Positions 47,451 through 64,000 are shown, numbered from the stretch's first letter. The stretch: 64,000 bases of DNA from Leptospiraceae bacterium (GCA_020440825.1 JAGRNJ010000012.1:1-64000); one strand, 5' to 3'. Notes: generated by a model not told the origin, from the sequence alone. Numbers and translations: made by a program.

Positions 47451-49226
47451 TTAAATCGCCGGCCCCATTGTACGCGGCGACTTATTTTCTATCGCATATT
47501 GCAGCATTGTGGTACTGGCAAACAGAACAGCATATTTTTTTGCCCGGGTTATTCCCGTGTAGACGATTTCTCTCATTGCCAGCGGGGTTTTGACATCGGG
47601 AAAGACCATCAATACCGAGCCGTACTCAGACCCCTGGCTCTTGTGAACTGTAATTGCCAATGCCGGAACCAGCTGGGAAAATCGATCACTGTGCAGGGTT
47701 ACCCACCCATTTGCCCCCTGAAAATAAGCCCTGAGCTCGCCTTTAAAGTTGAGCAGAATTCCCGTGTCGCCATTGTAAATACCCAGATTTCGATCGTTGC
47801 GGGTCATCATTACACAAAGTCCCTGAAAAAAATTCCCTCGATTTTCTTCGCCAAGCAAAGATTTCAGAATTCGCATACAGTTAGCATTGAGTGAGGTTAT
47901 ACCCCAGTAGCCTTCATTGACTAATCCCAGAACTTGCCTCTGTTGCATCAAGTTGAGAAGCTGTGCAACAATTTCGAAATCTTCATGCTGCGTTTTCGAA
48001 AATTTTCGAACCAGAGTAACAAACTCTGTATCGGCAAATTGCCCTTTGAGCCAGCTTGTAAGAACATTCTCGAGCTGATCTTTTTGACCGGCGTCATAAT
48101 GATAAATTGAAGAATCTTTGTCTGTCTCTAAAGTTCGAATAAAGGCAAGATCATCAGACAAATGAAGTTTCTCAATTTCATTGACTGTCGACGATGACCC
48201 CTCAATAATCATTTTAGACACTGTTTGAAACCTGGCACTGAAACGGTGGCTTTGCTGTAATTCTGTAATGTTTTTTTTATTACAGTTATTGAAAATCCAC
48301 TGCAGTACATCACCGGCTTGTACTGAGGGCAGCTGAAACTGATCACCCAGAAAAATGATACGGGAATCAAACCTGCACCGTGAGAGCAGATTTGCCATCA
48401 TCGCAGAATCAATCATTGAAACTTCATCGACCAGAATAAGAGAATAATCCAGCGGGGCGATTCCCGGTGTCTGACCTTTATAAATTCCCAGGGCTTTGTG
48501 CAAGGTCATCGATTGAATCTGGTAGACCCGTTCTTTGATCTGGTTGTCGTCTGTCAGTTTAGCCATGGTAAGGCGGATGGATTCCTGCATTCTACGGGCT
48601 GCCCGTCCCGTAGGAGCACACAATAAAATCTGCTCTGAAAAATAGTCAAACCGGGAAATCAGGTTTGATAGTATTGCTGCCAGCAGAGTTGTTTTTCCTG
48701 TACCCGGCCCTCCGACAATCAATGAAAATCGATGCTGCAGTGCTTTATTGAGAGCCTGTATCTGCAGGGTATTCAATGCAATTTTAGAATGCTTCGATTT
48801 CAATTCGGGAGCAGAAGTCTCTTTTTCTGAAACCTGCAGCCCTGCATTTATGATAAACTTTTTGATTATCTGATAGTCTTTGAACTGTCGAGCAAAGAAA
48901 ACCCAGATACCATTTGCATTTTTCTGAAATACAAGCGGCCGGTAATCAGATTCATGCCGGGCGACCAGATTTGATCGTGAGGGGTTGTCTGCCAGAGATT
49001 TCCATAGTTCAGGCAGATTCTCTTCAAAATTTTTCAAGTCAATTCTTTCGGCCAGGTTTTTTACATTTTCGATATCATTCAAATTGAGCGCGGTCGAGCC
49101 GCCCTGTAAGTTCAACCACAACAAACGAATCAGCAGTTTGAGCTGCAGATGTTCATCGTTGCCTGATACCAGTCGGTCGGCAAGTTCATGGGATACATCG
49201 ACTTTTCTCTCGCCCAGGTTTATCAT
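47451..49226 (-). CDS. recD: Exodeoxyribonuclease V alpha subunit RecD
   Basis: 591 residues. Walker A is 'LIVGGPGTGKTTLLAAIL' (Gly172-Thr180). Helicase motifs 'LVDEVSMIDSAMMANLL', 'IFLGDQFQLPSVQAGDVL' and the C-terminal 'ALAITVHKSQGSEYGSVLMVFP' and 'VYTGITRAKKYAVLFA' are present. RecD is the 5'-3' helicase of RecBCD for double-strand break repair and DNA degradation. It overlaps recB by four bases. Confidence 0.95.
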   Translation of the reverse strand: MINLGERKVDVSHELADRLVSGNDEHLQLKLLIRLLWLNLQGGSTALNLNDIENVKNLAERIDLKNFEENLPELWKSLADNPSRSNLVARHESDYRPLVFQKNANGIWVFFARQFKDYQIIKKFIINAGLQVSEKETSAPELKSKHSKIALNTLQIQALNKALQHRFSLIVGGPGTGKTTLLAAILSNLISRFDYFSEQILLCAPTGRAARRMQESIRLTMAKLTDDNQIKERVYQIQSMTLHKALGIYKGQTPGIAPLDYSLILVDEVSMIDSAMMANLLSRCRFDSRIIFLGDQFQLPSVQAGDVLQWIFNNCNKKNITELQQSHRFSARFQTVSKMIIEGSSSTVNEIEKLHLSDDLAFIRTLETDKDSSIYHYDAGQKDQLENVLTSWLKGQFADTEFVTLVRKFSKTQHEDFEIVAQLLNLMQQRQVLGLVNEGYWGITSLNANCMRILKSLLGEENRGNFFQGLCVMMTRNDRNLGIYNGDTGILLNFKGELRAYFQGANGWVTLHSDRFSQLVPALAITVHKSQGSEYGSVLMVFPDVKTPLAMREIVYTGITRAKKYAVLFASTTMLQYAIENKSPRTMGPAI

Positions 49227-52200
49227 TTCGAAACTACCTTTAAGATACCAGAGTTCGGGTTATCTTTGCGCAAACCCCGCAGGTACAGATAATAATAACC
49301 ACCATACAGATTTTTCTTTGTGCTTAAATGAGCGATGACAGCCTTTTCATAAATCTGGGCCTGCAGTAAATATTTCTTTTGAAAATCACTCTTCACAGAA
49401 TCAAGCTGGTAATTTTTTAATAATGATGATTTGTAATCGACAAAATAATATTTCCCCTGCCATTCAAAAAATAAATCGATGAACCCGGTTACGAATCCCG
49501 AACTTCTGTCTTTTCGAATTTCCGGAATTTCCTGTTCTATGATCGTGTCAGACATCAAAAAACCCAACTCTTTGATGGTCTTAGAATCGGGTATGTCGCA
49601 TAGTGAGCAGGTTTCATTTATAAAGGGGCAATGCATTACATTCCACAAGATGCCAGCCGTTTCTGTAACAATCAAGTCAAGATCATCGGTGATTTTGCCA
49701 TCGGGGTCAAATATCCGAATTCTGTTTTCATTCGCCAGGTCTTCAATAAGAGATTTGTACTGTAGCACTATATCATTCTGGGACTGCCATTGTTTTGCTG
49801 CAGAGAAGGGAATCAGTTCCAGAAGAGAGTGTAAGAAGTAACCTGTGGTATGGCTGGATAGGAGACCCTGATCGACAAACTCTTCTGGCTTATTTTGATC
49901 TGAATCAATTTGTTGTTCATCTTCTGTGGTTTCAATTGTTTGAATATTTGATTGAACCCGCCTGCTCAAAGAACTGAAAGACTGTATACCGTTTCGACGG
50001 TACAGAATATTCTGCATATCTGGACGCTGCCAGGCAGTAACTGAGTTTTTTTCAAAGCCGGGTTTCAATTCATTTGGCAAATTGCAGGGTGCCCGTAAAC
50101 TATCAAAATCTGACTCTGTCTCTGGTTTTTCTTCTTTTCGATACACTGTAATATGTTTCTCACGTTGCAGGCTCTCAAGACCGGGACTCAATAACTTTCC
50201 CACGGCAGTTAAAAAACTGGGAGTTTTGGATGTCAAGACTGGCAGCCAGCAATAATACTGTGCGCGTGTCACTGCTACGTAGCAGATTTTTCTGACTTCA
50301 TCGATGAGATCCAGCTCTCCTTGTGAATTTATCTGGTGCTGCTCTAACAAGTCTTTGTCAGGTTTATTGAAAACCAGATAAGATTTTTTTTCATAATTGC
50401 CTTTTTCATTTTTTTCAGATACAGAAACAACATCAGGATATTTTTGCATAGGTGAATTGAGGCCGGTGATAAATACAACAGGAAATTCCAGTCCCTTCGA
50501 CTTGTGAATGGTCATAACAGATACTGTTGAATCGGTAGAGATACGAAGTGGCTGTTTCAAATCAACTGTTTCAGTGTCGTGAAGAACTTCATTGGCATGG
50601 CGTAGCAGCATTTTGAGGTCTGCTCCAGATTGAATGGCAAAATCAGAAAAATATCGACACAGGGTTTCAAAGTTACTCTGCACGCGTTCTTTATTTTCAA
50701 AATGATCTGTGCAATGAGAGTTGCGTAAAATAATATTTTCAAGACTGGCAAAGACTTTTCCCCATTTTCTTTCTTGAGCCAGCTGGTTCAAATCAAACAA
50801 TTGGCTTTCAAAAACTGCGAGGGCATTTGAAAAAGTCTGGTTATGCAATTGCTCCTGGGAAAAATTTCCGACCGGGGTTAAAGCAGCAGTCAGCAGTTTG
50901 CGACGGTTATGGGGATCATCAATTGCCTGTAGTATAATTTTGAACTCGATCGCTTGAGTTGTCAGCCAGATATTTTCTTTATCTTTGAGCTCCCACGGAA
51001 TACCGTATCTACTCATCGCAGCTGTAATCTCTTGCCCTTCATTTAGATTGCGAATCAGCACCACCATATCTTGCCAGTCAAGAGATCGTTTATCGGCAAT
51101 GAGTAATTCTGCCCTTTTCTCGTACAAGCGCAACATTTCACTGCAAATTTCTTCGGCCATAAGATATTTGCGGTTCTCTTGTTTCAGATCTTCAGAAAAT
51201 TCAGGTACAAACAAGTTGAGAACAGAGCGTTCAATTGTCTGTAGAGTTTTCTCCCAGCCTCCCGAGTTTTTAAGATAAGATTTATGATTTTTCTGCGGAA
51301 ATTTTTTCAGGAATTCATAGCGCCCGGCTGCGCCTTCGAACAGAACAGTAAACAGAGAATTGAAAGCCCCAATAAGATTTTCGGTTGAGCGGTAATTCTC
51401 TTGCAGAATTTTCACGGTTCCATTATTATTCTCTGTAAGACGGTCACAGGCAAGATCAAATAAAGAAACGTCGGCCCCCCGAAAGCCATACATTGACTGC
51501 TTGGTATCCCCGACAATAATCAGAAAATTATCTGTATCTGGCTGGGTAAAGATCTGCTCAAAAATACTCCACTGCAGAGGGTCGGTATCCTGAAACTCAT
51601 CAAGCAGACCAACTTTGAATTTAGCCTGTAATTTTTTTCGAAGATCTGTGCGGTTTTTCAGATCTGCCTCGAGATCTGCAATCATAGATCGGTATGTAAT
51701 TAAGCTTTTTTCCCGCTCATGATCTGATTGCTCATCAGAAATACGTTCAGCGAGATGCAGCATTGCCAAATCTGACAAATCATCTTTAAATTTCTGACTC
51801 TCTTCCAGTAATTTCAGATAATCATGCCATGTCTGATTCAATTCATCTGGCAGATCAATACCATTCTTTTGAGAGTAGATTTGTAGAAATTTTGTGTAAT
51901 CAATTTTTATCTCTTTTACATCCTGGTAAATCATGACTTTACCGAGGATGAATTTATGCCAAAGCAGTTCTTTGCCAGGTGCTGGTATCAGTAGATTTCC
52001 CAGATGCTCCCTGTATCGAGCAAAAACTTCATTCTGTCTCTGCATTATTGTAAGTATTTGCTCAACCAGTATTTGAATGTTTCCGCTTTGCAGGTTTCGG
52101 CGTCCTGGTAATGGTAATTTCTTTTGAAACTGATTGAACAAACTGACACTTTCAACAGTGAACGTTCTTATTCTGCGGGCGGGTAAATCGGCAAAATCAG

Positions 52201-52657
52201 TAAACAATAAAGCCGAATAGTCACTTGAAGTCAAAGGCACTGTACCTGCCTGCAAAGCACGCAGGTAGTGGTTCAAGAGTTTTGAAATAATATTTGATGA
52301 ATTGGTCAATTGAGCAGATTCAATTGCAGCAGAGCCGATATTGTATTCCCGGTTTATTCGATTACAGAATCCGTGAATAGTGTGCAGATAGCATTTGTCG
52401 AAATCTGACAGACTTGATTGCAGACTTGCCCGTTTTCGTTGATCATTCTGGTTTTGCAACTCTGATTGCAGGCGGAGACGTATTCGGTGCCGTAATTGGG
52501 CAGTCGCAGCTTCAGTGTAGGTTAATATAAGTATTTCATCAATTCTATAATCTTCTTCAATAATCAGTTCAGCAACTGTCTTTTCGAGTTCAAATGTCTT
52601 GCCGGTACCTGCCGATGCCCGAATAATTTTATGCCGCTTATTCATTGTTTCAGGCAT
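49223..52657 (-). CDS. recB: Exodeoxyribonuclease V beta subunit RecB
   Basis: About 1144 residues from ATG 52657, which has AAGGAAA and overlaps recC by eight bases. The frame is open a further 17 codons. Walker A 'IIRASAGTGKTFELEKTV' (14-21). UvrD/RecB helicase motifs include 'DEFQDTDPLQWSIFE', 'IVGDTKQSMYGFRGADVSLF' and 'TIHKSKGLEFPVVFITGL'. The C-terminal nuclease has 'GFIDLFFEWQGKYYFVDYKS', with the Asp and Lys of the RecB nuclease motif, so both activities look intact. Confidence 0.97.
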   Translation of the reverse strand: MPETMNKRHKIIRASAGTGKTFELEKTVAELIIEEDYRIDEILILTYTEAATAQLRHRIRLRLQSELQNQNDQRKRASLQSSLSDFDKCYLHTIHGFCNRINREYNIGSAAIESAQLTNSSNIISKLLNHYLRALQAGTVPLTSSDYSALLFTDFADLPARRIRTFTVESVSLFNQFQKKLPLPGRRNLQSGNIQILVEQILTIMQRQNEVFARYREHLGNLLIPAPGKELLWHKFILGKVMIYQDVKEIKIDYTKFLQIYSQKNGIDLPDELNQTWHDYLKLLEESQKFKDDLSDLAMLHLAERISDEQSDHEREKSLITYRSMIADLEADLKNRTDLRKKLQAKFKVGLLDEFQDTDPLQWSIFEQIFTQPDTDNFLIIVGDTKQSMYGFRGADVSLFDLACDRLTENNNGTVKILQENYRSTENLIGAFNSLFTVLFEGAAGRYEFLKKFPQKNHKSYLKNSGGWEKTLQTIERSVLNLFVPEFSEDLKQENRKYLMAEEICSEMLRLYEKRAELLIADKRSLDWQDMVVLIRNLNEGQEITAAMSRYGIPWELKDKENIWLTTQAIEFKIILQAIDDPHNRRKLLTAALTPVGNFSQEQLHNQTFSNALAVFESQLFDLNQLAQERKWGKVFASLENIILRNSHCTDHFENKERVQSNFETLCRYFSDFAIQSGADLKMLLRHANEVLHDTETVDLKQPLRISTDSTVSVMTIHKSKGLEFPVVFITGLNSPMQKYPDVVSVSEKNEKGNYEKKSYLVFNKPDKDLLEQHQINSQGELDLIDEVRKICYVAVTRAQYYCWLPVLTSKTPSFLTAVGKLLSPGLESLQREKHITVYRKEEKPETESDFDSLRAPCNLPNELKPGFEKNSVTAWQRPDMQNILYRRNGIQSFSSLSRRVQSNIQTIETTEDEQQIDSDQNKPEEFVDQGLLSSHTTGYFLHSLLELIPFSAAKQWQSQNDIVLQYKSLIEDLANENRIRIFDPDGKITDDLDLIVTETAGILWNVMHCPFINETCSLCDIPDSKTIKELGFLMSDTIIEQEIPEIRKDRSSGFVTGFIDLFFEWQGKYYFVDYKSSLLKNYQLDSVKSDFQKKYLLQAQIYEKAVIAHLSTKKNLYGGYYYLYLRGLRKDNPNSGILKVVSK

Positions 52658-55600
52658 ATTTTTCCTTGAACTTCGAAATTTGGATTGATCTTGCTTTCTT
52701 TTTCTCAATAGTGAAAAAAGGAGAATAGAGTTTTCTGAAAAATTCTACAGTAAATTGACGGCTGGCAGAAAGTTTGGCAATTTTTCGAATGTCAGACAGG
52801 GGCGAATAAGATCCGAATTTAAATTCTTTTTTATCTTGCAGTTGTATTTTCAAAATGTTGTAGATTTCGTCATCGCTTAATTCAACCAAACTTTGCCAAG
52901 GAATTTTCTCGAGTGAATAATTATCCAGATTTACCGGGGAAGGTCTAACCAGCATTTCAGTAATTTCTGAAATACATTTGGTCAGGGTAGAATCGTCGAG
53001 AACAGATAAAACAAATCGGGTCGACTGAACTTTATTGGAATCTTGTGCGTAGTAAAAATTGGTCAACGTAATCTGTTTTATACCGGTAAAGTAACCGCAT
53101 TGAACGAGAAATAACAAGACAAACAAACGAGATACTGAGTCTGAATTCTGTCCAAATGCAGGCTCTCTTCTCGACAGATTATACAGTACCAATTCATCGG
53201 CAAATACAGCAAGATTATGCAATTCGAAAGTTAAATCAAAATCTGAGTCACATAAATTACCGGTAAAATGTACCATATTTTCTTTTTGCAAGATAAGTTG
53301 GGTCTTTTTCTCGCTTTGCCGATTAAAATAGTGAAACCGCAGAACATCAATGAAGTTCCCTTTTTTTTCCGGTACAACTTCTTCCTTACCGGCTAAGATT
53401 TCCTGAAACATTTTTTCCTGAAAGTTTGCGTATCGATAGAGTGCCATCGACATGTCTCCGGCTTCTTTATCGCCCGATATATCTTCGCTCCACTGTCCGC
53501 TGTATTTGAGAAAGTCCTGTGCTGCCAGAAAACTATGCATAATTGCCGTAAAATCTTCATAGCTCTGGGCTGCTTCAGTCTCTTGTGAGTTTATTTTTAG
53601 CCTGATCAAGTCAATTGTCTGTTGAAAGAATGATTTTGTCAGCCGCTCAAAATATGTGTTTGTGATATTCGAATGAAAATCAAATTCGGAATCTTCGAGT
53701 GAGGCCGTGCTCTGCTCGAGGTCTGATTTTTGAAAACTCTCCAGAAAATAGACCAGGGGATTATTATACAGTTTTCGAATATCATATAAAGTATATGTCT
53801 GAAGTCCTTCGGCTCTCGAATTAAAGTCTGTCTTGTATTGAGTTTCTTTTGACTCTTCTTCTGATCCTAAAACATTTTCCTGAATATTTCGGTGCAGGGA
53901 ATCATATCGATTCGGAAGCGAATCATTTATTTTTGAATACCCTTTGAGAGGAGCATCGACTATCTGTATTGGCAGACCATGACTTTGAGCAGAATTCATG
54001 AAACCCTCGACAACACTTGAAGGGTTTAGATTCTCGCCTGTTTCAGGTGAACTGCCATGGTACATTAAAAACAATTCTTCTCTGGCACTCGACAAAGATT
54101 CCAGAAATATGTAACGTTTTGCATCCGTGTTTTGTATATCGCTTAATTTATCTTCTTCTGTATAAACAGGCAAATGAATAAAATCAAAAAGATTGACTTT
54201 GTTTGTACCGGGAAAATCAGCTTCATTCAAGCCAACTATGAACAGTTTCTTGAAGGGTATTGGTCGCATTGGCAAAAGAGAAGAAATGCTCACACCGCCT
54301 GTCAGATAATGGCCCTTAAAAAAGGGAATTTCTTTTACTTCACTCTCAAGACAGGTTTGCACCATCTGCAGGCTTACATCGAGCTCGATTTTACTGGCAG
54401 AAGCAAAAAGATTTTTTAGAACCCCTGATATCGACTTACTCATCTGCTGTTCAGAAGGCATCGAATCAGGAACTTCAATACAGAACGCGATCATTCCGTT
54501 GAGGGTCTCAAAATCAGCAATTTTATTTCTGCAGGAATGAAAACTTAAGATCTGCTCAAGTACATAACCAAATTCTGCAAAGGCATTTTCAGAAGCGAGT
54601 GTGTTGAATGCAATGCCCTCATAAATATATGCGCCCGGGTCAGCCCCATCTTGCGCGGGCGGTAGAACCGAAGCAATCGCCATGCGGCTGAGCGCAGCAC
54701 TCAGGCTTAAACGGGAATTGGCTGTCTCGTGATCTGAGACAAACCGATAATGATCGAGCTGTGTCTCAATAATCTCCAGATCTTCTGGTGTCCATTGAAA
54801 CTTGAGGGAGACTAATGGTTCTCGAAAGAATTTCAGTACATTGTCACGATCAGGTCCGTCAATGAGTATTTTCAGGAATGCCAATAACGCAGACAGATAA
54901 ATGCTGCCGGTTGTGGCCGAAGAGTCAGCTACCGTATACGGAATCGGGAACTCTGCGCCATTGAATACCATATCAATCGCTGAAAGGTATTTGTCCATTT
55001 GCGGGGTTAAGATGCCTATTTCCTGTAATTGTAAATCTTTCTCTCGCAAAAGCATTGAATGAATAAGGTCATAGACCAGTTCAATTTCCCGGTGCACCCC
55101 GGGTACAGAGCAAATATGATATTTTATTTTTTGAGACCCTGACAAAACAAAACTCGAGTTAAAAGTCTGCTCGCATTGAATTTTGGTTTTCGATTTTTCA
55201 GCAAGATTTGATAAAAGTTTAAAATATTTTTGAGCAGGTTTAAGCCAGGCAGACAAAAACTCGTCTTTCAGTAGAAAAGATTCTTTATCGCCAGATTGCC
55301 CGATAAATGGAATAAAAGAAAGCTGGTAAAGATACACATCAAGAACCGATGACATTTTCAGCAGTACATTCAAGTGCAGTCGTGAAATCTGCGTATTGGC
55401 AAACAGAAATACGGGTGTGGTGTCGTTAAAAGAAAACTGGTCTGACATTTGAAGATAATGTAAAAGTTTTCCAGGAAAATAATTCTCAGTGCTGCTCATA
55501 ACCGAATTAAAAATCTGTATTGCATATTCCAGGCGAGAGGCTGAAACAGAGTCAAGACCTTGTGTTATCTTTTTAACAGCATTCTTTTTTCCCGAAAGCA

Positions 55601-56021
55601 AGTCGTCAGCATAACCGGGACGATGGTAGAATAGGTTTCGAAAACCAGTGCTCAATGTTTTTGCAGTTGCCCAACGTAAAGGAAAGTGGGGTTCTGCATT
55701 GCCGGTCAAACCCGCAAACAGTTTCAGATCATTTGTAAGAATATCAAAAGTTTTCAGCTGAATATCCAGATCACCAGAAAATATTTCTTCCTGGCTGGTC
55801 TGAATTCTGCGTCGAAGTGCTTTTTCAAGAAATACAGTCTCTAAATTCGCTGCAATACCACTATGTTCTGCGAGATACAGTTTAAGCCATTTTTCAACGT
55901 TAAGATTTGGAATGATTATTTCAGGCTTAAAAAATATATTTTCACGATGCTTTTGATTCTCGAGCCGAAATTGCTCGGCAAGGTCTTCAAGTCGATCACA
56001 GGAGACCAGATGAAAGGCCAT
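52650..56021 (-). CDS. recC: Exodeoxyribonuclease V gamma subunit RecC
   Basis: 1123 residues, the normal length. RecC has an inactive helicase-like fold that recognizes Chi. Visible marks are 'PEIIIPNLNVEKWLKLYLAEHSGIAAN', 'HRPGYADDLL' (variable), 'CSVPGVHREIELVYDLI', 'KDLQLQEIGILTPQMDKYLSAIDMVFNG', 'VSISSLLPMRPIPFKKLFIVGLNEADFP' and a C-terminal nuclease-like domain near 'NPLVYFLE'. The order recC-recB-recD is as in many bacteria. The small membrane gene ends one base before its start, so they are joined. Confidence 0.95.
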   Translation of the reverse strand: MAFHLVSCDRLEDLAEQFRLENQKHRENIFFKPEIIIPNLNVEKWLKLYLAEHSGIAANLETVFLEKALRRRIQTSQEEIFSGDLDIQLKTFDILTNDLKLFAGLTGNAEPHFPLRWATAKTLSTGFRNLFYHRPGYADDLLSGKKNAVKKITQGLDSVSASRLEYAIQIFNSVMSSTENYFPGKLLHYLQMSDQFSFNDTTPVFLFANTQISRLHLNVLLKMSSVLDVYLYQLSFIPFIGQSGDKESFLLKDEFLSAWLKPAQKYFKLLSNLAEKSKTKIQCEQTFNSSFVLSGSQKIKYHICSVPGVHREIELVYDLIHSMLLREKDLQLQEIGILTPQMDKYLSAIDMVFNGAEFPIPYTVADSSATTGSIYLSALLAFLKILIDGPDRDNVLKFFREPLVSLKFQWTPEDLEIIETQLDHYRFVSDHETANSRLSLSAALSRMAIASVLPPAQDGADPGAYIYEGIAFNTLASENAFAEFGYVLEQILSFHSCRNKIADFETLNGMIAFCIEVPDSMPSEQQMSKSISGVLKNLFASASKIELDVSLQMVQTCLESEVKEIPFFKGHYLTGGVSISSLLPMRPIPFKKLFIVGLNEADFPGTNKVNLFDFIHLPVYTEEDKLSDIQNTDAKRYIFLESLSSAREELFLMYHGSSPETGENLNPSSVVEGFMNSAQSHGLPIQIVDAPLKGYSKINDSLPNRYDSLHRNIQENVLGSEEESKETQYKTDFNSRAEGLQTYTLYDIRKLYNNPLVYFLESFQKSDLEQSTASLEDSEFDFHSNITNTYFERLTKSFFQQTIDLIRLKINSQETEAAQSYEDFTAIMHSFLAAQDFLKYSGQWSEDISGDKEAGDMSMALYRYANFQEKMFQEILAGKEEVVPEKKGNFIDVLRFHYFNRQSEKKTQLILQKENMVHFTGNLCDSDFDLTFELHNLAVFADELVLYNLSRREPAFGQNSDSVSRLFVLLFLVQCGYFTGIKQITLTNFYYAQDSNKVQSTRFVLSVLDDSTLTKCISEITEMLVRPSPVNLDNYSLEKIPWQSLVELSDDEIYNILKIQLQDKKEFKFGSYSPLSDIRKIAKLSASRQFTVEFFRKLYSPFFTIEKKKARSIQISKFKEKYA

Positions 56022-59422: not shown

Positions 59423-60253
59423 TTAATTTGCAGCGGCTGTGTACTTTCGTTTGGCAGTCAAAACTTTGTAGGCTCCGAAAACTGCGAGAGGCAAACTCAA
59501 CCACTGGCCCATGGTAAGCACTGTTTCAGCAGAGGTAAATTCACTTTGCACATCTTTTACAAACTCTACCAGAAAACGCATGGTGAAATACAGAAAGACA
59601 AAGTACCACATATAATAACCTTCTGGAACTTTTTCCCGGTTTTTTCGAAACGAAAAATAGAGAATGGCAAAACAGATAAAACCAATCACTGCTTCATATA
59701 GCTGTGAGGGGTGACGCGGAATGCTGTCAATGCGAGTAAACACCACAGACCAGGGTAAGTCTACCGCCCGGCCGAGTATCTCTGAGTTTGCAAAATTACC
59801 GAATCGAATAAACGATGTGGTGATTGTGGCACCGATGGCAATACAGTCTGCCATCCGCCAGAAACTTATTTTGTATCGACGCGTATAAATATACAAGCCC
59901 AAGATTGCCCCGATAAAACCGCCATGGCTGGCAAGACCAGAACCAACCTGGATAATACGAATCGGATTTTTATAAAATGCCGATGGTTCATAAAAAATCA
60001 AATGTACCAGGTGCGCACAGATAATGACCAGAACCAGTATATAAATTAGAGCGTTATCAATATGTACGGGATCAACTTCTCTAAGCGGCAGCAGTTTTCT
60101 TGCCATGGCATATGCAAGAAAAATTCCCGTCGCAAACAAGATGCCATAGTAACGAATTTCGAGAAAACCAAGTTGAAATGCAATGGGATTTAAATCCCAG
60201 ATAAAATACTCACTACCCACGGGGAACTTTGCGGGCGTGCTACAGCACGTCAA
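59423..60253 (-). CDS. lgt: Prolipoprotein diacylglyceryl transferase
   Basis: 276 residues from TTG 60253, which overlaps the kinase stop by four bases. GTG 60220 is an alternative. About seven membrane helices. 'RYYGILFATGIFLAYAMARKLL', 'GLASHGGFIGAILGLYIYTRR', 'FIRFGNFANSEILGRAVDLPW' and 'RHPSQLYEAVIGF' are Lgt motifs. The RFGNFAN segment corresponds to the usual GRxGNFxN signature, with Ile for Gly before Arg. It lipidates the lipobox Cys, upstream of LspA in the pathway. A hairpin CGTGCT-AC-AGCACG lies at 60236-60249. Confidence 0.93.
   Translation of the reverse strand: MTCCSTPAKFPVGSEYFIWDLNPIAFQLGFLEIRYYGILFATGIFLAYAMARKLLPLREVDPVHIDNALIYILVLVIICAHLVHLIFYEPSAFYKNPIRIIQVGSGLASHGGFIGAILGLYIYTRRYKISFWRMADCIAIGATITTSFIRFGNFANSEILGRAVDLPWSVVFTRIDSIPRHPSQLYEAVIGFICFAILYFSFRKNREKVPEGYYMWYFVFLYFTMRFLVEFVKDVQSEFTSAETVLTMGQWLSLPLAVFGAYKVLTAKRKYTAAAN
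60236..60249. promoter_or_regulatory. Hairpin at the start of lgt
   Basis: CGTGCT and AGCACG arms around AC. It covers the first codons after the TTG start and could influence whether the TTG or the later GTG (60220) is used. Confidence 0.35.
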
Positions 60254-62709
60254 TAACGACGCAAGGTTTCTTTTACACTTTCGGTGATACCTTCGGGGCC
60301 TAAGGCAGCGAGTAAACTGTTGCGAATCTCAGGATGACAAAAGACGCTGGCCCTTGCCGCGAAGCTCATCAGCTGGGCATGAATGCTTTCCCAGACATCT
60401 GAGACACGACGGCCATCGTCTGAGCGCGTTGTTAGATTTCTCTGCATCATTTTTGGTTCTGGAATAAAGAATAATTTATCTCGAGAACCGGTTGAAGGCC
60501 GGGGAGCATCGACCAGAATTCTTCGTGGTTTTACAAGCTCTGCCAGCACGCGGGAAGAAACCTGTGGCGCGAGCAACGAAACATTTGGCAGACTGGATGA
60601 ATTCAGTTTAAGCGCGTATTTTTCTTTTATCTTAAGCTGCAGCTGGTTTTGAAAATCTGTCAGGTTATTTAGTTTTTGAATTTTTTCATATTCTGCATCT
60701 GTCAGTAAACCTGCCGATGAGTGAAACACAATCAATCGTTTATAGTAATTTCGAGCTTTGATCATCTCAAGTAATTCTTTACCCGTTAAGTCTGTTCGCT
60801 CTGCCAAAAATTTGAGCATTAAGTCAATGGTCACTTCTGCAGGTTTGTCATGAGCACCGAGAAATTTTTCCAGCTCTGCACTGAATGCAGCAGACTTCCC
60901 TTTGCCTTTGACGCTCACAACCCGAACAACTTCTCGAATCATACTGCGCATCGCACGGGAAGAATGGTGCCAATAAACAGTCTGGTACATCATATAACGT
61001 GCAAAACTCATCGACTCGGCCGCATTGCGTCCCTTTTCATAGGTCCCGATGTTGACTTTCAGCCTGCCGGTTTCAGTTCTAATCATGATTACAGTCAGGC
61101 TGCGAATAAGCCGATCGGGATCAATTGCCAGGCCATAGGGCAACTGACAGCGCCGGGAATCTCGCAAGAGATAATCCAGTTTATCTACGTCGATAGGTCC
61201 GTCAATTATGGATGCCAGCATCATCTCTTTGAGTCTTAATCGACCGAAAATATCCGGGGTGTCTGAGGCTTTTTGCTCAATATCGAGCAGGTTGATCACC
61301 TGATTTAAGTCGACCCCCCAGTAATCTTTTCCTGCAATTAGATCTGCAAGAGTGCGTCCCTGGTTATCCTGGCTTTTATTTTTAAGAAAAGCAAGGGTTA
61401 AAGATTCATGGTGCAGCTCTGGCCGGGCCTCTTCGAGAGTATGTCCGAACGGGTGTTGCCCGAGATCATGCAATAATGCCGAAAGCAATACTGCCTTCAA
61501 ATCTGCGGTATTGACAATCTGCCTGAAAAAAGGATTATGCGGATCCAGAAAAAGATGACGTACATATAGGGTTGCATTGCGGTAAACCCCGAGCGAATGT
61601 TCAAAGCGATTATGGTTGGCAGTAGGATATATTGTTTCAATCAATTCGAGCTGGGGTACAAGCTTCAAACGGGTAAATACCGGATGCTGTAAAATCTGTT
61701 TTAACCTGCCGGTAAAGGCTACAGGGGAACCTTCGGCAACACTCAAAGTTGAAAAACTGTCCGGGTCAATTTCAGGCAGTTTGCGCAGATAGTTCTCGGG
61801 GTATAGTAGCTTCTCAAGGTTTTCAAGTAACTCAACCGCCGATTGAATCTGCAGTTCAGCTATTTCACCTGCCTCAAGTTGAAGCCAGGTTTCTGTTACA
61901 ATCGGGAACTCCTGTCCCCTTTTCTGAAAATCTGAACGAAGTTGCAGATAGTCGGCTTGTGAGAGATTTTTTCCCTGCAGCAGACGGCAGCCAAGCAGAT
62001 GAAGATAGTTAAAATGGTAATCATAATCGCAAATATCGGGAAAGGCAAGGTCTATCATTTTTAAAAAGTAGAGAATAGTCCTTCCCAGAGAATACAGATC
62101 AAAACGGGTATGTATGCTCTTACTTTCTACCTCTGCAATATTTCTCTCCAGAACAGAAGAATTCAATTCACTGGTTAAATCGGGATGAGCAAAAAATGGA
62201 GTAAAATGAATTTGAACTTTTTGACTGGCCGGCAAACTGCAACTGCCCGAAAAATCAATCAGTACTGCTCTACCGTTTTCATTGAGTAGAATATTTTCAG
62301 GTTTAATGTCAAGGTGCACAATATTCTGGGCATGCAGATAGACCAGCCCGGCAGCCAGTTCATACATTCTGGCAGCAAGAAAGAAATTGATTTCGGGTAA
62401 AGAACGGCCTTGAGTAATTAAATTACTAAGAGCCTGCTGTAAATTTCCTGATGTACCGACATCTTCGAGACTCAACCAGCCCTCACGGGAAAAAACATCC
62501 CGGCGTACACGAACCAGCGACGCATTATTCAATCGTGAAAGTATGGCTCTTTCATTTTCAATGAACGAGATGAGTTCGTTTGTCTCACTTACTTTTACAA
62601 CACCGGAATACTCGCCACTTAAACGGTAAACCCGGGAGAGACCGTTAGAACTCAATAGTTGAAAATTCTGGTTGGGTAAGGTCTGGCAGAACTCTTCAAA
62701 AGATTCCAT
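60250..62709 (-). CDS. Protein kinase fused to a SAMHD1-like HD phosphohydrolase
   Basis: 819 residues in two parts. Residues ~15-305 are a Hanks-type kinase: Lys39 (GVVKV), Glu51/53, catalytic loop 'VHLDIKPENILL' (Asp134, Asn139), 'IDFSG' for DFG (Asp152) and 'FDLYSLGR'. Residues ~325-800 are an HD domain of SAMHD1 type: 'HNRFEHSLGV' (His371), 'ALLHDLGQHPFGH' (His414, Asp415) and 'IDVDKLDYLLRD' (Asp509, Lys510). These match the HD residues and the dNTP-contact Lys of SAMHD1. All key residues of both parts are present. SAMHD1-like enzymes hydrolyse dNTPs. Both activities, and any control of one by the other, are inference. It follows the membrane gene by two bases and overlaps lgt. Confidence 0.88.
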   Translation of the reverse strand: MESFEEFCQTLPNQNFQLLSSNGLSRVYRLSGEYSGVVKVSETNELISFIENERAILSRLNNASLVRVRRDVFSREGWLSLEDVGTSGNLQQALSNLITQGRSLPEINFFLAARMYELAAGLVYLHAQNIVHLDIKPENILLNENGRAVLIDFSGSCSLPASQKVQIHFTPFFAHPDLTSELNSSVLERNIAEVESKSIHTRFDLYSLGRTILYFLKMIDLAFPDICDYDYHFNYLHLLGCRLLQGKNLSQADYLQLRSDFQKRGQEFPIVTETWLQLEAGEIAELQIQSAVELLENLEKLLYPENYLRKLPEIDPDSFSTLSVAEGSPVAFTGRLKQILQHPVFTRLKLVPQLELIETIYPTANHNRFEHSLGVYRNATLYVRHLFLDPHNPFFRQIVNTADLKAVLLSALLHDLGQHPFGHTLEEARPELHHESLTLAFLKNKSQDNQGRTLADLIAGKDYWGVDLNQVINLLDIEQKASDTPDIFGRLRLKEMMLASIIDGPIDVDKLDYLLRDSRRCQLPYGLAIDPDRLIRSLTVIMIRTETGRLKVNIGTYEKGRNAAESMSFARYMMYQTVYWHHSSRAMRSMIREVVRVVSVKGKGKSAAFSAELEKFLGAHDKPAEVTIDLMLKFLAERTDLTGKELLEMIKARNYYKRLIVFHSSAGLLTDAEYEKIQKLNNLTDFQNQLQLKIKEKYALKLNSSSLPNVSLLAPQVSSRVLAELVKPRRILVDAPRPSTGSRDKLFFIPEPKMMQRNLTTRSDDGRRVSDVWESIHAQLMSFAARASVFCHPEIRNSLLAALGPEGITESVKETLRRY

Positions 62710-62711
62710 AG

Positions 62712-63506
62712 TTATGAAAGTTTTTTCAGGTCGAACCGCATCCAGACAATCAACGCAACATATGCCAGAATAAAACCATACAGACTCATCCCATAGGCGG
62801 CAGAAATCTCAAGAATACGATTGTGGTAGGCCGGAATCACTTTGATCGAAACCAGAATTGCAACGATGAGAAAAATTATTAAAGGGATGGAGTACTTGCT
62901 TCTTGCAGGTTTTTCATTTTTATTCTGCTCAGCAAGATTGGTACCCATCATCATCAGAAAAATACCGGCAAAATAGAATACCGCAGAAAAAAACAGTGAC
63001 ACTGAAAATGCAATACTGAGCCAGAAAATATTTCCCAAAGAAACGGGAATCAGAATGGCTGCTAACCCGGCGGCTAATGGCACAAACAGTGTGACCGGTA
63101 AAAAATAGGTAAATTTCAGCCGGGTTTCAGAGTTATCGGCAGAGTTCTTTATCATCCAGAGTCCCGCCAGATAAAATACAAACTGAAAGAAAGTGCTGAC
63201 TGCGATCGCAAAAAATAATGCGATTGAATTGTCAATAAAATACTGAATCACCGGGCCCGAAACAACCAGTGCGGGCAGTAAAAAACCATAATAAGGAAGA
63301 TGGTAGATGAGTTTGAAGTACACTTGATTGTTCAGATAACGGCGAATGGCAATTCGCATTCCTGCAAAATAAAAGATATAACCGCCCAACAGACTTAGAT
63401 AATACGCAGCAAAAACTGCACCATGAAAATCATGGTATACGGGTATCAACAGTGCAGAAACAAGAAGTACAATAAAGAAATAGATCAAAAATGGTACAAA
63501 AATCAT
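62712..63506 (-). CDS. Multi-span membrane protein, unknown function
   Basis: About 264 residues from ATG 63506. TTG 63524, overlapping the upstream stop, would add six. About eight hydrophobic helices in pairs, with repeated 'FYFAG/FYLAG' ends (YIFYFAGMRIA, FVFYLAGLWMI, AVFYFAGIFLM), suggesting three or four internal units. No family name. It lies between the oxidoreductase and the kinase-HD genes in one operon and may be a membrane partner of the latter (inference). Confidence 0.75.
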   Translation of the reverse strand: MIFVPFLIYFFIVLLVSALLIPVYHDFHGAVFAAYYLSLLGGYIFYFAGMRIAIRRYLNNQVYFKLIYHLPYYGFLLPALVVSGPVIQYFIDNSIALFFAIAVSTFFQFVFYLAGLWMIKNSADNSETRLKFTYFLPVTLFVPLAAGLAAILIPVSLGNIFWLSIAFSVSLFFSAVFYFAGIFLMMMGTNLAEQNKNEKPARSKYSIPLIIFLIVAILVSIKVIPAYHNRILEISAAYGMSLYGFILAYVALIVWMRFDLKKLS

Positions 63507-63520
63507 ATCTACAACGCCAT

Positions 63521-64000
63521 TCAATCTGCAAATTCAGTTGACAAGAGTAATTTACCTCGGGTGGTTCTGCTTTCTATCGAAGTATGCGCGGTACCTGCAT
63601 TTTCCAGCGGATAAGTTGCATGAATATGCGGTGCCAGTTTTCCTGCCCGCCATTCTTTCAAAATCTGAGACATCAACCCGCGCAGGTGATCAAGATGATC
63701 CCACAATAAAAGCAATTGAACCCCGGCGAGAGAAATATTACGGGAGATCAAATCAAGCGGATGAACTCTGGCTCGAATATATTCACTCGCAGATTTTATT
63801 GCGCCAATCGGCTGCAACAGAAGATGACCATCGGGTGGCAGAATGCCTGCCCCCCCGATGGTAACCGCTCTGCCCATTGGCTTCAACAGACCTAATGATT
63901 TTACCAGAGCTGTACCCCCTAAAGAATCAAGCAGCAGATCAATTCCTGAATTGTTGGTAATTTCCTGTACCCGCTCAACAAAATCTTCATGAGAAGAGTC
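63521..64000 (-). CDS. Zinc-type alcohol dehydrogenase / quinone oxidoreductase-like protein (N-terminus outside window)
   Basis: The 3' 159 codons of an MDR-family gene that continues past the right edge. 'NNSGIDLLLDSLGGTALVKSLGLLKPMGRAVTIG' and 'LAPHIHATYPLENAGTAH' are the typical NAD(P)-fold end and C-terminal strand of quinone reductase-like proteins. The substrate is unknown. It is the first visible gene of the minus-strand operon leading to the kinase-HD protein and lgt. Confidence 0.85.
   Translation of the reverse strand, partial: DSSHEDFVERVQEITNNSGIDLLLDSLGGTALVKSLGLLKPMGRAVTIGGAGILPPDGHLLLQPIGAIKSASEYIRARVHPLDLISRNISLAGVQLLLLWDHLDHLRGLMSQILKEWRAGKLAPHIHATYPLENAGTAHTSIESRTTRGKLLLSTEFAD

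What the first reader, a model, noticed from the sequence alone, without database searches (positions are those of the whole stretch)
60250..62709. Protein kinase fused to a SAMHD1-like dNTPase-type HD domain
Seen: one open frame joins an N-terminal Hanks kinase with all catalytic residues (Lys39, Asp134, Asn139, Asp152) to an HD domain whose motifs RFEHSLGV, LLHDLGQHPFGH and IDVDKLDYLLRD match SAMHD1, including the Lys after the last metal Asp. Known: SAMHD1 hydrolyses dNTPs, restricts viruses, and is controlled by phosphorylation in human cells. Inference: this could be a built-in kinase switch on a dNTP hydrolase, for DNA-precursor control or phage defence. The fusion is not one I know as characterised.
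Basis: partly seen in the sequence, partly recalled or inferred. Interest (0 to 1): 0.88.

Follow-up and report, generated by a model that had tools for sequence, protein, structure and literature searches.

The report
Kinase fused to SAMHD1-like nucleotide hydrolase
A bacterial gene encodes one protein that joins a protein kinase to an enzyme related to the human antiviral dNTP-destroying protein SAMHD1; relatives are very rare but one sits inside a phage genome, so it may be a self-regulated, single-gene switch that cuts off DNA building blocks, perhaps against phages.

Summary
Minus-strand gene 62709-60250 encodes one intact 819-aa protein: a Hanks-type kinase domain (about 1-305), an HD domain of the SAMHD1/EF1143/aq_1910 branch (about 330-660) and a conserved C-terminal region. 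Profiles, fold predictions and conserved residues support both halves. 'SAMHD1-like dNTPase' needs two caveats. All four complete fusions carry Gln where SAMHD1 has His210; all 57 stand-alone relatives checked have His. SAMHD1 H210A loses activity, but E. coli Dgt, a true dGTPase, has Asn there. The SAMHD1 GTP-activator motif is also absent.

The fusion is rare: 3 of 13 genomes of the host's family, one probable fragment in the phylum, none in two planctomycete surveys (294 and 398 genomes), where stand-alone HD proteins form the sister group. One 866-aa fusion (31% identical) lies on a phage contig between terminase and portal genes. In one family member the kinase half has lost its catalytic residues, so phosphotransfer is not always kept. 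It is the only protein kinase above the Pfam cut-off in its genome.

Best reading: a one-gene nucleotide-pool hydrolase gated by a built-in kinase or pseudokinase domain, plausibly anti-phage. Activity, substrate and defence are untested. No description of this architecture was found.

The parts
60250..62709 (-). Whole gene: 819-aa kinase-HD fusion, ATG start at 62709
61795..62709 (-). Kinase domain, residues about 1-305: Lys39 (beta3), Glu53 (helix C), HLD134xK136xxN139, D152FS, helix-F Asp204; degenerate Gly-rich loop; extra conserved C-lobe segment about 219-248
   Evidence: Pfam Pkinase; residues against phage kinases; model; Foldseek
61723..61794 (-). Linker, residues about 306-329, whose start (LPEID) resembles the N-terminus of stand-alone planctomycete HD proteins
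   Evidence: the A1 profile matches those proteins from position about 308
60730..61722 (-). HD phosphohydrolase domain plus HD-associated region, residues about 330-660: Q353, R368, H371, H414/D415, Q418, H423, E426, H434/E435, D509, K510, Y513, D517, Y579
61453..61464 (-). Codons 416-419 (LGQH) that hold the diagnostic Gln418, equivalent to SAMHD1 His210
60250..60729 (-). C-terminal region, residues about 661-819, conserved among the fusions (DAPxPS, HPEIR, LLAALGPEG)
   Evidence: model confidence moderate
59423..60253 (-). lgt (prolipoprotein diacylglyceryl transferase), overlaps the fusion's stop by 4 bases; neighbourhood not conserved in relatives, so not part of the system
62712..63524 (-). 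Predicted membrane protein of unknown function, 2 bases upstream of the fusion; probably co-transcribed, but not found beside the fusion in relatives

Best explanation
A single-gene, self-contained nucleotide-pool hydrolase. The C-terminal half is a metal-dependent (d)NTP triphosphohydrolase of the SAMHD1/EF1143 branch. The N-terminal Hanks-type kinase domain is its built-in regulator: it binds ATP and, where catalytically intact, probably phosphorylates its own chain, which replaces the GTP/dNTP allosteric control used by SAMHD1. When released by a trigger not yet known (most plausibly phage infection), the HD half would deplete DNA precursors and stop replication. SHOWN: the fusion, both folds, the retained catalytic residues, the fusion-specific His-to-Gln change, rarity, and a copy on a phage contig. 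INFERRED: hydrolytic activity and substrate, ATP binding, autophosphorylation, direction of regulation, and the defence role (I put defence at about 0.45, a regulated (d)NTP hydrolase at about 0.6).
For: Both domains above the Pfam cut-offs in one chain; kinase and SAMHD1/EF1143 folds by structure search. HD metal ligands, the general acid His423 (SAMHD1 His215), Glu426 at the Asp218 position, His434, Lys510, Tyr513, Asp517, Gln353, Leu354 and Tyr579 are kept in all four fusions. His423 and Glu426 have the same spacing to the HD motif as the H126/E129 catalytic dyad of the anti-phage dGTPase CloA and as HDIGNPPFGHFGE of E. coli Dgt. The activator motif D137/Q142/R145 is absent (Q/T/K, T/E/K, N/S/K, K/K/A), so control must be different. 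The fusion is one clade (support 100/99) in which the kinase and Gln418 go together. It is the only kinase above the Pfam cut-off in its genome, so an intramolecular role is natural. Patchy distribution and a phage-contig copy beside portal, head protease, terminase, Sak4-like protein and a serine integrase fit mobile defence cargo. A bacterial dNTPase with a dedicated regulator is already known in defence: Clover (PMC12265719).
Against: Gln418 replaces a His whose Ala mutant in SAMHD1 loses catalysis and active-site nucleotide (PMC7045340). The kinase half of L003 lacks the catalytic residues, so phosphotransfer cannot be the shared mechanism. The Gly-rich loop is degenerate in three of four members. 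The window is not a defence island: its neighbours are RecBCD-like, cytochrome c biogenesis and lgt genes, and no PADLOC model matches beyond the kinase region. The phage-contig case is a single instance.
Confidence: 0.5

Rival explanations
1. Housekeeping control of DNA precursors, not defence: the kinase half couples dNTP breakdown to ATP level or growth state.
For: Chromosomal, in a local gene string with lgt and ordinary neighbours, with base composition like the neighbours; stand-alone relatives are widespread (240 of 398 Planctomycetia genomes, one copy each), which looks like a housekeeping gene.
Against: The fusion itself is patchy (3 of 13 family genomes), its neighbours are not conserved, and one copy is on a phage contig.
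Confidence: 0.25
2. The HD half is altered or weak: it binds nucleotide as a sensor, and the kinase half (acting on other proteins) is the output.
For: Gln418 in all fusions at a position needed for substrate binding in SAMHD1; activator motif lost; kinase residues intact in three of four fusions, including the phage one.
Against: In L003 it is the kinase that is dead, while all HD residues are kept: the selective pressure is on the HD half. E. coli Dgt works with Asn at the same position.
Confidence: 0.13
3. The HD half is an active phosphohydrolase or nuclease on a substrate other than the canonical dNTPs, for example modified phage dNTPs, rNTPs or a signalling nucleotide; Gln418 marks the change of specificity.
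For: Fusion-specific His-to-Gln substitution with all other catalytic residues retained.
Against: Residues that select deoxyribose in SAMHD1 (Gln149, Leu150, Tyr374) are all kept as Gln353, Leu354, Tyr579 (their role is from general knowledge of SAMHD1).
Confidence: 0.2
4. Chance fusion or assembly artefact.
For: The organism is known here only from a draft genome of 173 contigs.
Against: Full-length homologues at 41-44% identity in two other genomes and 31% on a phage contig, all in frame and monophyletic.
Confidence: 0.01

Closest known systems
SAMHD1 (animal and fungal dNTPase)
   Same: HD fold and almost all active-site residues; antiviral dNTP depletion regulated by phosphorylation is the obvious analogy
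   Different: No SAM domain; own kinase in cis instead of CDK in trans; His210 is Gln; GTP-activator motif absent
EF1143 (Enterococcus faecalis dNTPase, 2o6i/3irh) and relatives aq_1910 (2hek), BT4208 (2q14)
   Same: Closest solved structures by sequence; same HD plus HD-associated layout
   Different: No kinase; His at the Gln418 position; activator motif of the DxxxxQxxR type present in this branch but not in the fusions
Stand-alone COG1078-type HD proteins of Planctomycetota (L007-L010)
   Same: Sister clade of the fusions in the HD tree (97/87), about 31-34% overall identity
   Different: 443-464 aa, no kinase in any of the surveyed genomes, His at the Gln418 position
Clover CloA/CloB anti-phage defence and defence dGTPases
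   Same: Bacterial HD-family dGTPase with a dedicated regulator that keeps it off until infection (PMC12265719)
   Different: CloA belongs to the Dgt-type dGTPases and is regulated by a nucleotide made by a separate NTase; no NTase gene neighbours the fusions
Defence kinases (PD-T4-6, MAD6, MkoA, PglW)
   Same: Best PADLOC and NCBIfam kinase matches
   Different: Match limited to the kinase core; none is joined to an HD hydrolase

Membership tests
Hanks-type protein kinase (PF00069) | Significant profile match and kinase fold | tested here: met
   60.3 bits against cut-off 31.7; model pTM 0.76, top structure matches all kinases
Hanks-type protein kinase (PF00069) | Catalytic Lys, helix-C Glu, HxD Asp, Asn, DFG Asp, helix-F Asp | tested here: met
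   K39, E53, D134, N139, D152, D204 in the window protein; the last five are invariant against 12 phage kinases plus L072
Hanks-type protein kinase (PF00069) | Gly-rich loop GxGxxG | tested here: not met
   SSNGLSRVY; only the phage homologue L072 has RGGAGIVVKV
Hanks-type protein kinase (PF00069) | Phosphotransfer activity | not testable with these tools
   Family member L003 is a predicted pseudokinase (HLSLNPDC, TQFA)
SAMHD1/EF1143-type dNTPase | HD metal ligands (H167, H206, D207, D311 of SAMHD1) | tested here: met
   H371, H414, D415, D509
SAMHD1/EF1143-type dNTPase | General acid His215 with its acidic partner Asp218, and His233 | tested here: met
   H423, E426 (Glu for Asp), H434; roles from PMC7311409
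SAMHD1/EF1143-type dNTPase | His210, substrate coordination | tested here: not met
   Gln418 in 4 of 4 fusions, His in 57 of 57 distinct stand-alone relatives; role from PMC7045340
SAMHD1/EF1143-type dNTPase | GTP-activator site motif (D137, Q142, R145) | tested here: not met
   Q341, T346, K349; motif from PMC12042053
SAMHD1/EF1143-type dNTPase | dNTP triphosphohydrolase activity and tetramer | not testable with these tools
   Needs purified protein
Dgt dGTPase (TIGR01353) | Score above the family cut-off | tested here: not met
   22.2 bits against 152.35; shares only the local HDLG-amide-xPFGHxxE motif
RelA/SpoT or tRNA-nucleotidyltransferase HD groups | Better match than to SAMHD1-type HD | tested here: not met
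   No such family in the Pfam or NCBIfam hits
Known anti-phage system (PADLOC), e.g. Clover | Whole-protein model match and partner genes | tested here: not met
   PADLOC matches confined to the kinase core; no NTase among the neighbours searched

The most novel reading that the evidence does not exclude
A new class of one-gene bacterial immune protein: a SAMHD1-family dNTP hydrolase held in check or fired by a kinase domain in the same chain, spread by temperate phages, with the kinase fold in some lineages reduced to a pseudokinase sensor. It would be a bacterial parallel, in one polypeptide, to the phospho-control of human SAMHD1.
Probability: 0.3. Interest if true: 0.82.

Novelty: new variant of a known kind. 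Interest (0 to 1): 0.62.

Why it matters
SAMHD1 is the textbook antiviral dNTPase, and how it is switched, including the role of phosphorylation, is still argued over. A compact bacterial protein in which kinase and hydrolase are one chain would let that coupling be studied directly. The fusion-specific His-to-Gln change gives a ready mutant test, and the phage-borne copy suggests an unrecognised defence or superinfection-exclusion gene that current defence-gene catalogues do not contain.

Tried and rejected
Rejected: chance or artefact (homologues in other genomes); Dgt or RelA-type HD; conserved operon with lgt or the membrane protein; defence island in the window. Searches that gave no fusion: tblastn against plasmids and named phages, genome-contig scan (only stand-alone HD proteins), 294 Planctomycetota and 398 Planctomycetia genomes (overlapping samples), further viral scans (searches gave only the same contig). 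A weak phage hit to the kinase region (LR745208) is a DnaJ-kinase, unrelated. The first full-length model had low confidence in the kinase half (pLDDT below 50), so a second model of that half alone with phage kinases was made; it borrows distant sequences, so its detail should not be over-read. Relative orientation of the two domains is unknown. Literature searches found no description of a kinase fused to a SAMHD1-type HD domain, but the library holds only open-licence papers.

Full report
WHAT IS THERE. The gene runs on the minus strand from ATG 62709 to the stop at 60250 and encodes 819 aa without interruption. The kinase half matches Pfam Pkinase (48-216, E 2.5e-16) and the rest matches HD (368-458) and HD_assoc_2 (529-662), all above the curated cut-offs. 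By sequence the nearest solved structures for the HD half are aq_1910 (2hek), BT4208 (2q14), EF1143 (2o6i) and SAMHD1, E 1e-11 to 1e-19; by structure they are SAMHD1 orthologues and EF1143 (model; pLDDT mostly 75-93 in the HD part). The kinase half, modelled with phage kinases as company, gives a complete kinase fold (pTM 0.76) whose matches are all kinases (PDK1, Aurora, LIMK1; E about 1e-12).

KINASE RESIDUES. Lys39 (beta3), Glu53 (helix C), Asp134, Lys136, Asn139, Asp152 and Asp204 are present; Glu53, Asp134, Lys136, Asn139, Asp152 and Asp204 are invariant in an alignment with 12 phage kinases and the phage fusion. The Gly-rich loop is degenerate in the window protein and L002, and missing in L003. 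The phage copy L072 has a normal one. In L003 HLDIKPEN has become HLSLNPDC and IDF has become TQF, so it is a predicted pseudokinase.

HD RESIDUES. Equivalents of SAMHD1 Q149, L150, R164, H167, H206, D207, H215, H233, D311, K312, Y315, D319 and Y374 are the same in all four fusions; D218 is Glu. H215 and D218 are the catalytic acid pair of SAMHD1 (PMC7311409), and the window's H423/E426 have the spacing of the H126/E129 dyad of the defence dGTPase CloA (PMC12265719). The exception is position 418. All four fusions have Gln; 33 of 33 stand-alone relatives and 27 of 27 loci (57 distinct genes in all, three being repeats) have His. In SAMHD1 the H210A change disrupts catalysis and active-site nucleotide binding (PMC7045340). 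E. coli Dgt has Asn there (HDIGNPPFGH), so an amide is compatible with dGTP hydrolysis in a related enzyme. The GTP-activator motif of SAMHD1 is absent in all fusions, though it is also incomplete in many stand-alone relatives.

DISTRIBUTION. In the host's class, all 48 genomes held were searched: three carry the fusion, all in the window's own family (3 of 13), each in a different genus. In 393 genomes of the phylum the only further candidate is G066, whose contig starts inside the gene (query 559-813). Planctomycetota have close stand-alone HD proteins (26 of 294 genomes at E up to 1e-40; 240 of 398 Planctomycetia at E up to 1e-50) and no listed match reaches into the kinase part. In the HD tree the fusions form one clade (100/99), sister to the planctomycete proteins (97/87). 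IMG/VR holds one fusion, L072 (866 aa, 31% identity, E 5e-85). Its contig carries portal, head protease, terminase, a Sak4-like protein and a serine integrase; the fusion lies between terminase and portal on the opposite strand. That is a usual place for cargo genes of temperate phages, which often include defence genes (general knowledge).

CONTEXT. In the window the gene follows a membrane protein by 2 bases and overlaps lgt by 4, but lgt in four relatives has none of these neighbours and the other fusions have different ones. Nearby are RecBCD-like and cytochrome c biogenesis genes. L003 is preceded by two receiver-domain genes, the second overlapping its start. The fusion is the only protein above the Pkinase cut-off in its genome.

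INTERPRETATION. The HD half is kept intact everywhere, while the kinase half varies from canonical (L072) through slightly degenerate (window, L002) to dead (L003). This points to the HD hydrolase as the output and the kinase fold as its regulator, acting by ATP binding in all and perhaps by autophosphorylation in most. The coincidence of kinase gain with Gln418 suggests that catalysis or specificity was retuned when the new control was added. Phage carriage and patchiness favour a role in phage conflict, but this rests on one contig and no experiment. Side evidence that this HD branch releases triphosphate: a stand-alone relative in the phylum (L026) is fused to a CYTH domain, a fold known for hydrolysing inorganic triphosphate (general knowledge).

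NOVELTY. Both domains are known; their fusion, the Gln signature and the phage copy were not found described in the literature available. I therefore call it a new variant of a known kind.

Noticed in passing
L026:553-2580 (-), genome G368 of the same phylum: SAMHD1-type HD protein fused at its C-terminus to a CYTH (triphosphate-tunnel) domain, E 1.1e-12: it might hydrolyse the triphosphate that the HD half releases.
   Followed up: partly
L072:4488-7088, IMGVR_UViG_3300042261_002397: Phage contig whose kinase-HD fusion lies between terminase and portal genes on the opposite strand, near a serine integrase; used as main evidence but its host is unknown.
   Followed up: partly
L003:2-1089: Two response-regulator receiver genes directly upstream of the pseudokinase-HD gene; the second has an extra C-terminal region without a Pfam match and overlaps the fusion's start, so in this lineage a two-component input may replace the kinase.
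   Followed up: no
L078:4938-6362, IMGVR_UViG_3300035703_001958: A 474-aa SAMHD1-type HD protein on a viral contig that also encodes an Hsp70 and long repeat-like proteins; it looks like a giant-virus fragment that carries its own SAMHD1-like gene.
   Followed up: partly
window 47451-56021: RecBCD-like gene string (RecD-like helicase, UvrD/RecB-like, RecC with Exonuc_V_gamma); PADLOC matches here are helicase cross-hits.
   Followed up: partly
L149:2518-3552 (LR745208, 485-kb phage): DnaJ domain fused to a protein kinase in a very large phage.
   Followed up: no
whole window: Host not named; genome sizes of the family (one relative of 4.4 Mb in 2 replicons) made me suspect Turneriellaceae (Spirochaetota), not tested.
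   Followed up: no
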